Source: Halorientalis sp. LT38
GTDB lineage: Archaea; Halobacteriota; Halobacteria; Halobacteriales; Haloarculaceae
Assembly: GCF_037031225.1 (NCBI RefSeq)
Contig: NZ_JAYEZN010000001.1
Coordinates: forward strand, 930,001-994,000
DNA: 64,000 bases
Direction of reading: 5' to 3'
Below are positions 173-30,484 of this stretch, piece by piece (position 1 is the first letter of the stretch; every line of letters starts with the position of its first letter). The notes beneath the pieces are model-generated. The model saw nothing but the letters and a program-made list of their open reading frames with translations. It had not been told where the DNA came from and made no database searches. The position numbers and the translations under genes are program-made.

Positions 173-381
173 AATCGACCCAAACAGACACGGACCTCCT
201 CACGACCGCCGTCGAGGAGGGGTATTTCAGGGTCCCTCGGCGAACGACGTTAGTAGCCCTCGCGGACGCACACGACATTTCGGACGTCGAAGCGTCCGAA
301 CGACTTCGCGCCGGGATCGATTTGGCTCTGCGAGAACATCTCGACGGTGTTGATGCCACTGACGCTACCGATCACGAGTGA
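169..381 (+). CDS. Small Bat-type HTH protein
   Basis: A 70-residue protein. Residues about 19-58 (YFRVPRRTTLVALADAHDIS and onward) match the HTH_10 helix-turn-helix that ends bacterio-opsin-activator (Bat) regulators. Here the HTH stands alone, without the sensory GAF/PAS parts. It overlaps the preceding winged-helix gene by 4 nt, so the pair is likely an operon of two DNA-binding proteins. The family match is clear; the regulated genes cannot be read from the sequence. Confidence 0.75.
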   Translation: MKSTQTDTDLLTTAVEEGYFRVPRRTTLVALADAHDISDVEASERLRAGIDLALREHLDGVDATDATDHE

Positions 382-725
382 TTATCTGCGGCGGTCGTCG
401 TTTGCGTGGTTCTCGACTGCTAGTAATTCGTCGAACAGCACCTCGGAGAAACAACGTCACGGCGGATGGCTCCGGTCAAGCAACACACTGTACTGATCGA
501 ATTGAGAGGAGCGAAGAACGGGTGTGTGAGCTGCTCTGTGCCACCATCGGTGGGTTACTCAGCATCCGCGACGCGAAGTCGGTCGAAAGGCGCTACGCGC
601 TCGTTCGTGATGTCCCCAGACGTCTCCGATTTCTGGCTGCAGGCGGGAACGTTCCGATTTCCCGCAACGACGAGAGACGCCACTGGTCTCTCGAACCACC
701 GCGACTCGACGAAAAAGGTACGTTC
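382..725. other. Intergenic stretch, no gene recognised
   Basis: This 344-bp stretch separates the plus-strand HTH pair from the end of the minus-strand aroA' gene. Frames that remain open across it read as arginine- and serine-rich antisense of GC-rich DNA. I see no convincing promoter, hairpin or RNA gene. Confidence 0.5.
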
Positions 726-30061: not shown

Positions 30062-30146
30062 GCCGAGGTAGCCTAGCCTGGCCAAGGCGGTTGCTTCGAG
30101 AGCAACTGTCCTCACGGACTCAGGAGTTCAAATCTCCTCCTCGGCG
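30062..30146 (+). tRNA. tRNA-Ser (anticodon CGA)
   Basis: The acceptor stem pairs GCCGAGG (30062-30068) with CCTCGGC (30139-30145), followed by discriminator G. The anticodon loop TTCGAGA is held by GTTGC/GCAAC and reads CGA, decoding UCG. The long variable arm (GTCC-TCAC-GGAC) is that of a class II serine tRNA, and the T-arm is GGAG-TTCAAAT-CTCC. CCA is not encoded. The 3' half is repeated downstream (see the repeats). Confidence 0.92.
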
Positions 30147-30208
30147 CTTCTGCCGACGCAAGCCGACGAGCAACGCGAGTCGGTACCGTCGGCAGAGCGG
30201 CGAGTGGA
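30126..30208 (+). repeat. tRNA 3'-end repeat, copy 1 (within the tRNA and its downstream flank)
   Basis: Starts with GTTCAAATCTCCTCCTCGGC, the T-loop and acceptor end of tRNA-Ser, and continues about 60 bp beyond the tRNA. The whole 83 bp recurs at 30402-30484 with only a few substitutions, 276 bp apart. Confidence 0.75.
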
Positions 30209-30274
30209 ATTTGAATGAGGGGAGTCGCAGCCCGCGCAACGAGCGAAGCGAGTGAGCAGGACCGTCTTCGCGTG

Positions 30275-30295
30275 GTTCAAATCTCCTCCTCGGCG
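30275..30295 (+). repeat. tRNA-Ser 3'-end repeat, copy 2
   Basis: An exact 21-bp copy of the T-loop, T-stem and acceptor 3' strand of the tRNA, beginning GTTCAAATC. The sequence after it differs from copies 1 and 3. Confidence 0.8.
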
Positions 30296-30401
30296 TTTTT
30301 CACGAGCCAACTCGGCGAGTGGAAACGCCGTCGAGATTTGAGCAGACGAGTCGCAGCCCCGGAACGGTGCGAAGCACCGCACGCCCGGAACGTCTCGGCG
30401 T

Positions 30402-30484
30402 GTTCAAATCTCCTCCTCGGCGCTTCTGTCGACGCAAGCCGACGAGCCCCGCGAGTCGGTACCGTCGGCTGAGCGGCGAGCAAC
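30402..30484 (+). repeat. tRNA-Ser 3'-end repeat, copy 3 with extended flank
   Basis: The first 21 bp are an exact copy of the tRNA 3' end; the following 62 bp repeat the tRNA's own downstream flank with a few changes. The copy ends just before the small membrane gene at 30500. Confidence 0.8.

What the first reader, a model, noticed from the sequence alone, without database searches (positions are those of the whole stretch)
30126..30484. Repeats built from the tRNA-Ser T-arm and acceptor end
Two exact 21-bp copies of the tRNA 3' end follow the tRNA-Ser(CGA) gene. Before each copy stands an inverted T-loop (ATTTGA core) and a shared block GAGTCGCAGCCC, so each unit can fold back on itself. 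The tRNA's own downstream flank is also repeated with the third copy. Serial integration scars would give direct copies, but the inverted T-loop and shared internal block suggest a replicating tRNA-derived unit or a processed RNA.
Basis: partly seen in the sequence, partly recalled or inferred. Interest (0 to 1): 0.72.

Follow-up and report, generated by a model that had tools for sequence, protein, structure and literature searches.

The report
Hairpin repeats mirroring haloarchaeal tRNA ends
Just after many tRNA genes in salt-loving archaea sit short hairpin-forming repeats that carry a mirrored piece and a forward copy of the end of whichever tRNA gene they follow; they are class-wide, I found no description of them, and they hint at an unrecognised way of inserting DNA at tRNA genes.

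Summary
Behind tRNA-Ser(CGA) lie two units, each built as: flank hairpin, inverted T-arm, hairpin core (NAGTCGCAG...CGTCTN), exact copy of the tRNA 3' end. A covariance model finds units in 187 of 194 Halobacteria genomes, about 25-35 in the richest, and in no non-haloarchaeal genome sampled from the phylum. Of 149 units, 144 lie behind a same-strand tRNA (31 isoacceptors). The direct copy matches the local tRNA (acceptor 7-mer 75%, against 0.5% for other tRNAs), and the inverted arm follows even rare T-loops. Near-identical cores sit at different tRNAs in one genome, each with arms matching its own tRNA. tRNA-proximal tails are better preserved than distal ones. Rfam, viral contigs and open-access papers gave no description. 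Simple integration scars or one 276-bp duplication do not explain this. My preferred, unproven mechanism is serial insertion at tRNA 3' ends by recombination at the T-arm, with the unit's folded hairpin as partner site. An RNA role in the tRNA trailer is the main rival.

The parts
30062..30146 (+). tRNA-Ser(CGA) gene, the anchor of the array
   Evidence: ARAGORN and Rfam RF00005
30126..30146 (+). T: the tRNA's own T-arm from G53 plus acceptor 3' strand, the copied tail
30147..30204 (+). F1: flank hairpin behind the tRNA (CTTCTGCCGACG...CGTCGGCAGAG)
   Evidence: fold z -3.8
30205..30216 (+). t'1: inverted T-arm of unit 1
   Evidence: model hit 30205-30286
30217..30274 (+). linkers and core hairpin of unit 1 (AGTCGCAG...CCGTCT at 30223-30267)
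30275..30295 (+). T copy 1: exact 21-nt copy of the tRNA tail
30296..30332 (+). F2: second flank hairpin, different from F1 but like the flank behind tRNA-Ser(CGA) in sister species
30333..30343 (+). t'2: inverted T-arm of unit 2 (GAGATTTGAGC)
   Evidence: model hit 30332-30413
30344..30401 (+). linkers and core hairpin of unit 2 (AGTCGCAGCCCC...CCCGGAACGTCT)
   Evidence: fold z -3.2
30402..30422 (+). T copy 2: exact 21-nt copy of the tRNA tail
30423..30480 (+). terminal flank, a copy of F1 (95% identical)

Best explanation
The window holds two members of a class-wide family of small repeats that sit serially at the 3' ends of tRNA genes in Halobacteria. SHOWN: each unit is [flank hairpin F][inverted T-arm t'][core hairpin c][direct T-arm plus acceptor 3' strand T], so an array reads tRNA(T)-F-t'-c-T-F-t'-c-T-F. 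T, and less strictly t', match the tRNA at that locus, whereas cores and linkers are shared between different tRNAs. INFERRED: new units enter at the tRNA end by recombination within the T-arm. The single strand t'-c-T folds so that its stem rebuilds the T-arm duplex of that tRNA, and this folded site recombines with the T-arm in the tRNA gene. The incoming tail restores the tRNA; the old tail is pushed outward and decays. Functionally this would resemble integron attC or CTXphi attP hairpins, with the T-arm as target. The recombinase is unknown and would act in trans.
For: Units in 187/194 Halobacteria genomes, none outside the order in the phylum sample. 144/149 behind a same-strand tRNA, 31 isoacceptors; blind pattern scan 111/127; own genome 17/42 tRNAs with a direct tail copy downstream, 0/42 upstream. 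Tail follows the local tRNA 75% against 0.5%, inverted stem 6-mer 22% against 2%; T-loop variants followed 21/27 and 13/15. Same core at different tRNAs in one genome with local arms. Stem covariation above shuffles. Sister species have 2, 4, 5 and 0 units at the same tRNA with reassorted flanks and cores. Proximal tails better preserved, 22 against 6 arrays, p 0.004. Flanks before and after a single unit usually differ (87/96), as insertion predicts. A flipped core in L061. Haloferax prahovense has a perfect 21-nt inverted tail, eroded in relatives.
Against: No recombinase identified; G036, with more than 30 units, has only two PF00589 matches, and unit-free genomes have as many as others. 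No unit in phage records or viral contigs with the patterns tried. Usually no cargo. No circular form or fresh junction seen. The inverted arm rarely extends beyond the T-arm. Unit 1 of the window does not fold better than shuffles. Nine of 96 single-unit arrays have duplicated flanks, which local duplication explains better.
Confidence: 0.42

Rival explanations
1. RNA-level element: the units are transcribed as part of the tRNA 3' trailer and act as terminators, processing guides or decoys for tRNA 3'-end enzymes. t' pairs with the downstream tail copy, keeping it off the real tRNA, and selection on this fold keeps the arms matched to the local tRNA.
For: Same strand as the tRNA and near-constant distance; stem covariation; G-U pairs exceed A-C on the tRNA-sense strand, though mostly in two subfamily columns; hairpins near 3' ends can promote termination in Haloferax volcanii (PMC7237163).
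Against: Sister species differ in having 0 to 5 units at the same tRNA, many tRNAs have none, and some genomes have none at all, so the units are dispensable. An RNA role does not explain how a shared core acquires arms of a new tRNA. The T-rich flank would be expected to end transcription before the unit. No expression data available here.
Confidence: 0.25
2. No dedicated machinery: units spread and stay matched through repeat-mediated rearrangement, replication template switching and gene conversion between the tRNA tail and its copies, acting on a common haloarchaeal hairpin sequence.
For: Flank duplications in 9/96 single-unit arrays and exact tandem copies; first and last flanks alike in this locus; repeat-mediated deletions are described in Haloquadratum (PMC3119063); cores also occur away from tRNAs.
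Against: Does not by itself place units at dozens of different tRNAs with both arms local, nor explain why they follow tRNA genes almost only.
Confidence: 0.2
3. Serial scars (attR remnants) of ordinary integrative viruses or plasmids that target tRNA genes.
For: tRNA 3' ends are the usual archaeal att sites (PMC8371274). True scars exist beside units: L130 (42-bp tRNA-Gly fragment plus unit on both sides of 3 kb), L041, L258.
Against: Scars would not share one core across 31 tRNA isoacceptors, carry an inverted T-arm, or keep a uniform short spacing. No unit found in viral contigs. The clear scars hold more of the tRNA and look different.
Confidence: 0.08

Closest known systems
Integron attC sites and cassette arrays
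   Same: Imperfect hairpin of similar size, array growing from one fixed end, occasional genes between sites (L040, L132)
   Different: Anchored at dozens of different tRNA genes; stem sequence follows the local tRNA; no attC core consensus; no integron integrase shown
tRNA attachment sites of archaeal tyrosine recombinases (SNJ2, SSV, pT26-2 and others)
   Same: Element end carries a copy of the tRNA 3' end that restores the gene
   Different: Units of about 130-150 bp usually without genes, with an added inverted T-arm and a core shared across tRNA specificities
CTXphi attP fold-back hairpin
   Same: Two inverted att copies close together can fold into one duplex target site
   Different: Known from memory as XerCD/dif based in Vibrio; no single-stranded phage link found here
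REP/BIME and MITE palindromic repeats
   Same: Many dispersed short palindromes without genes
   Different: Fixed sequence and scattered sites, not arms matched to the adjacent tRNA
tRNA-derived SINEs
   Same: tRNA sequence within a multiplying repeat
   Different: SINEs descend from one tRNA and insert elsewhere; here the tRNA part follows each locus

Membership tests
Integron attC array | Conserved core sites RYYYAAC / GTTRRRY (consensus from memory) | tested here: not met
   The tail copies begin GTTCAAA or GTTCGAA, with C where R is needed
Integron attC array | Integron integrase IntI nearby | not tested
   Only PF00589 was counted in whole genomes, without typing; the window neighbours scanned by Pfam include no recombinase
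Integron attC array | Imperfect hairpin of about 55-140 nt in a polarised array | tested here: met
   67-91 nt hairpins; proximal tails better preserved
Ordinary tRNA integration scar (attR) | Direct copy of the tRNA 3' end at the distal boundary | tested here: met
Ordinary tRNA integration scar (attR) | Integrated element with integrase or viral genes between copies | tested here: not met
   Units are 127-149 bp apart here without genes; cargo seen in L040, L130, L132 and L054 shows no integrase
CTXphi-like hairpin attP | Hairpin carried by a single-stranded DNA virus or element | tested here: inconclusive
   No real hit in phage records or viral contigs with the patterns tried
REP/RAYT system | Dedicated Y1 (RAYT) transposase | not tested
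Known structured RNA (Rfam 15) | Match to a family model | tested here: not met
   Window and 14 other unit loci: no unit reached a family's gathering score
Transcribed and processed tRNA trailer RNA | Transcription through the unit and defined ends | not testable with these tools
   No expression data held

The most novel reading that the evidence does not exclude
Halobacteria carry an unrecognised integron-like recombination system that uses tRNA genes as anchors: single-stranded hairpins whose stem rebuilds the T-arm of a given tRNA are inserted serially behind it, usually empty and occasionally with cargo genes.
Probability: 0.3. Interest if true: 0.92.

Novelty: categorically new. Interest (0 to 1): 0.8.

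Why it matters
A repeat family found in nearly every haloarchaeal genome, beside a large share of its tRNA genes, has no entry in Rfam and no description that I could find. Its arms are matched to each host gene, which fixed-sequence repeats cannot do. It offers a testable case either of hairpin-based site-specific recombination at tRNA genes in archaea, or of a class-wide RNA feature of tRNA trailers. It should also help annotators who meet partial tRNA copies in haloarchaea.

Tried and rejected
Single 276-bp duplication: rejected, cores and flanks differ. Block found only here: rejected. Virus or plasmid origin: no hits in phage records, only chance coding matches in viral contigs, one weak plasmid hit in Natrinema. 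Known RNA family: none. A full inverted tail including the acceptor end as a rule: rejected; the inverted copy is mostly the T-arm only (median 13 of 21 matches against 12 in controls), with a perfect 21-nt case only in Haloferax prahovense L232. Strand polarity from G-U against A-C: suggestive only, driven by two columns that mark subfamilies. Abundance of tyrosine recombinases as an explanation: unit-free genomes have as many PF00589 matches as unit-rich ones. A core inherited vertically with its tRNA: not seen between two distant genomes. Literature searches found no description; most subscription journals and bioRxiv are not covered.

Full report
CHECK. The tail is far beyond chance (0.01 matches expected with up to 3 mismatches). 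The block by itself is weaker evidence: its exact form occurs four times in the genome, two of them outside this locus.

HOW WIDE. BLAST of 423 bp against 57 genomes of the family hit two stretches again and again. The hits stop at the T-loop, and the loci lie behind many different tRNAs. I aligned 36 units; the drawn structure has 94.4% paired cells (86.7% when shuffled) and 42 cells with changes on both sides (13 when shuffled). Model R1 built from them finds units in 187 of 194 Halobacteria genomes. In a phylum-wide sample of 197 genomes, all 31 with a match belong to the window's order. Full listings give 33, 36 and 26 matches in three genomes, a few of these being one palindrome read on both strands. 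The seven genomes without a match at first have few weak matches or none when searched more deeply.

ANCHORED TO tRNA. Of 149 distinct units, 144 have a tRNA upstream on the same strand, 31 isoacceptors in all; first units lie mostly 31-107 nt behind it. Because these loci were fetched through earlier hits, I used two further checks. In the window's own genome, 17 of 42 tRNAs have at least 12 nt of their tail repeated within 400 nt downstream and none upstream; inverted copies of 9 nt or more, 18 against 1. A unit-free haloarchaeon (0 of 16) and a non-haloarchaeal genome (1 of 16) lack this.

ARMS FOLLOW THE LOCAL tRNA. The acceptor 7-mer (nt 66-72) of the own tRNA is in the unit tail in 75%, of other tRNAs in 0.5%. 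For the inverted arm the stem 6-mer gives 22% against 2%. T-loop variants are followed: 21 of 27 for TTCGAATC and 13 of 15 for rarer loops such as TTCAATTC and TTCAACTC. Beyond the T-arm the inverted copy is weak: median 13 of 21 matches against 12 in controls. A perfect 21-nt inverted tail exists behind tRNA-Leu(UAA) of Haloferax prahovense and is incomplete in two related species.

CORES ARE SHARED. In G133, Ser(CGA) and His(GTG) carry nearly the same core (94%) with arms AGAGATTTGAACC/GGTTCAAATCTCT and AGAGATCGAACC/GGTTCGATTCTCG; Gly(TCC) and Gly(GCC) of G036 share an identical core with different arms. Between these two distant genomes, core similarity at the same tRNA (0.414) equals that at different tRNAs (0.412). 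Cores can be replaced by quite different hairpins, while linker pairs recur.

ARRAY BEHAVIOUR. Four species of one genus, with the same cytochrome P450 gene downstream, have 2, 4, 5 and 0 units at this tRNA, with flanks and cores reassorted (P450). The proximal tail is better preserved than the last in 22 arrays and worse in 6 (p = 0.004). In 87 of 96 single-unit arrays the flanks before and after the unit differ; in 9 they are near-duplicates. In L061 the core is flipped while the tail keeps its orientation. Conventional integration scars also occur next to units and look different: L130, with a 42-bp tRNA fragment and a 3-kb insert, L041 and L258.

MECHANISM. The facts ask for a process that joins a shared core to arms matching the target tRNA and puts new units at the tRNA end. 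A folded single strand t'-c-T whose stem is the T-arm duplex, recombining with the T-arm, does this and restores the tRNA. It is an inference by analogy with integron attC and CTXphi attP (known to me from memory). No enzyme, circle or junction was seen. G036, unit-rich, has only two PF00589 matches. The RNA-trailer model is the main rival; no expression data were available. Gene conversion and repeat-mediated rearrangement surely contribute, as the duplicated flanks show.

COMPARISON. No Rfam family matches the units. The tail copies do not fit the integron core consensus. The units are not ordinary attR sites. The searched passages of the archaeal tyrosine recombinase review and of the archaeal integron paper do not describe them (PMC8371274, PMC9668308), and the Haloquadratum paper links its partial tRNAs to prophages (PMC3119063). 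I rate the family as a new kind, with the reservations that its mechanism is unproven and that a description in literature I could not search is possible.

Noticed in passing
L055, L072, L085, L164, L167, L178, L184; also L206, L232: Unit tail copies recurrently carry one extra base in the T-loop (GTTCACAATC, GTTCGACATC, GTTCAATATC) at nearly the same point at different tRNAs and genomes, reminiscent of extrahelical bases.
   Followed up: partly
L252 around 290-450 (reverse strand), G386:C43:7571-7719: In a MAG the tRNA-Asp gene is interrupted exactly between G53 and T54 by a t'-core segment; no other intact tRNA-Asp was found in that assembly. Misassembly is possible.
   Followed up: partly
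L061 3085-3167: Core in inverted orientation relative to the tRNA while the distal tail keeps tRNA orientation.
   Followed up: partly
L060, L065, L087, L091, L094, L096, L097: Solitary core hairpins without T-arms and without a nearby tRNA, in or beside intergenic regions.
   Followed up: partly
L040 3000-4890, L132 (reverse strand), L054 6300-15650, L130 2780-6200: Genes lie between units of one array: a 201-aa protein with a twin-arginine-like signal, a luciferase-like monooxygenase, a pst phosphate operon, and a DUF7342 protein inside a conventional tRNA-Gly insertion.
   Followed up: partly
L154, L157, L160, L175, L176, L055, L067, L040: Another repeat (CCACCTTTTTACTCGTCGGGTTCGC...AAAAATCTGGACCAAAAACG...GGCGGATGCTGG) often follows the last unit tail and in L040 itself ends in the tRNA tail.
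   Followed up: no
G069, G102, G165 (no match); G075, G091, G120, G158 (few, weak): The few Halobacteria lacking units; several gave far fewer first-look candidates, perhaps because of lower G+C. Loss was not separated from divergence.
   Followed up: partly
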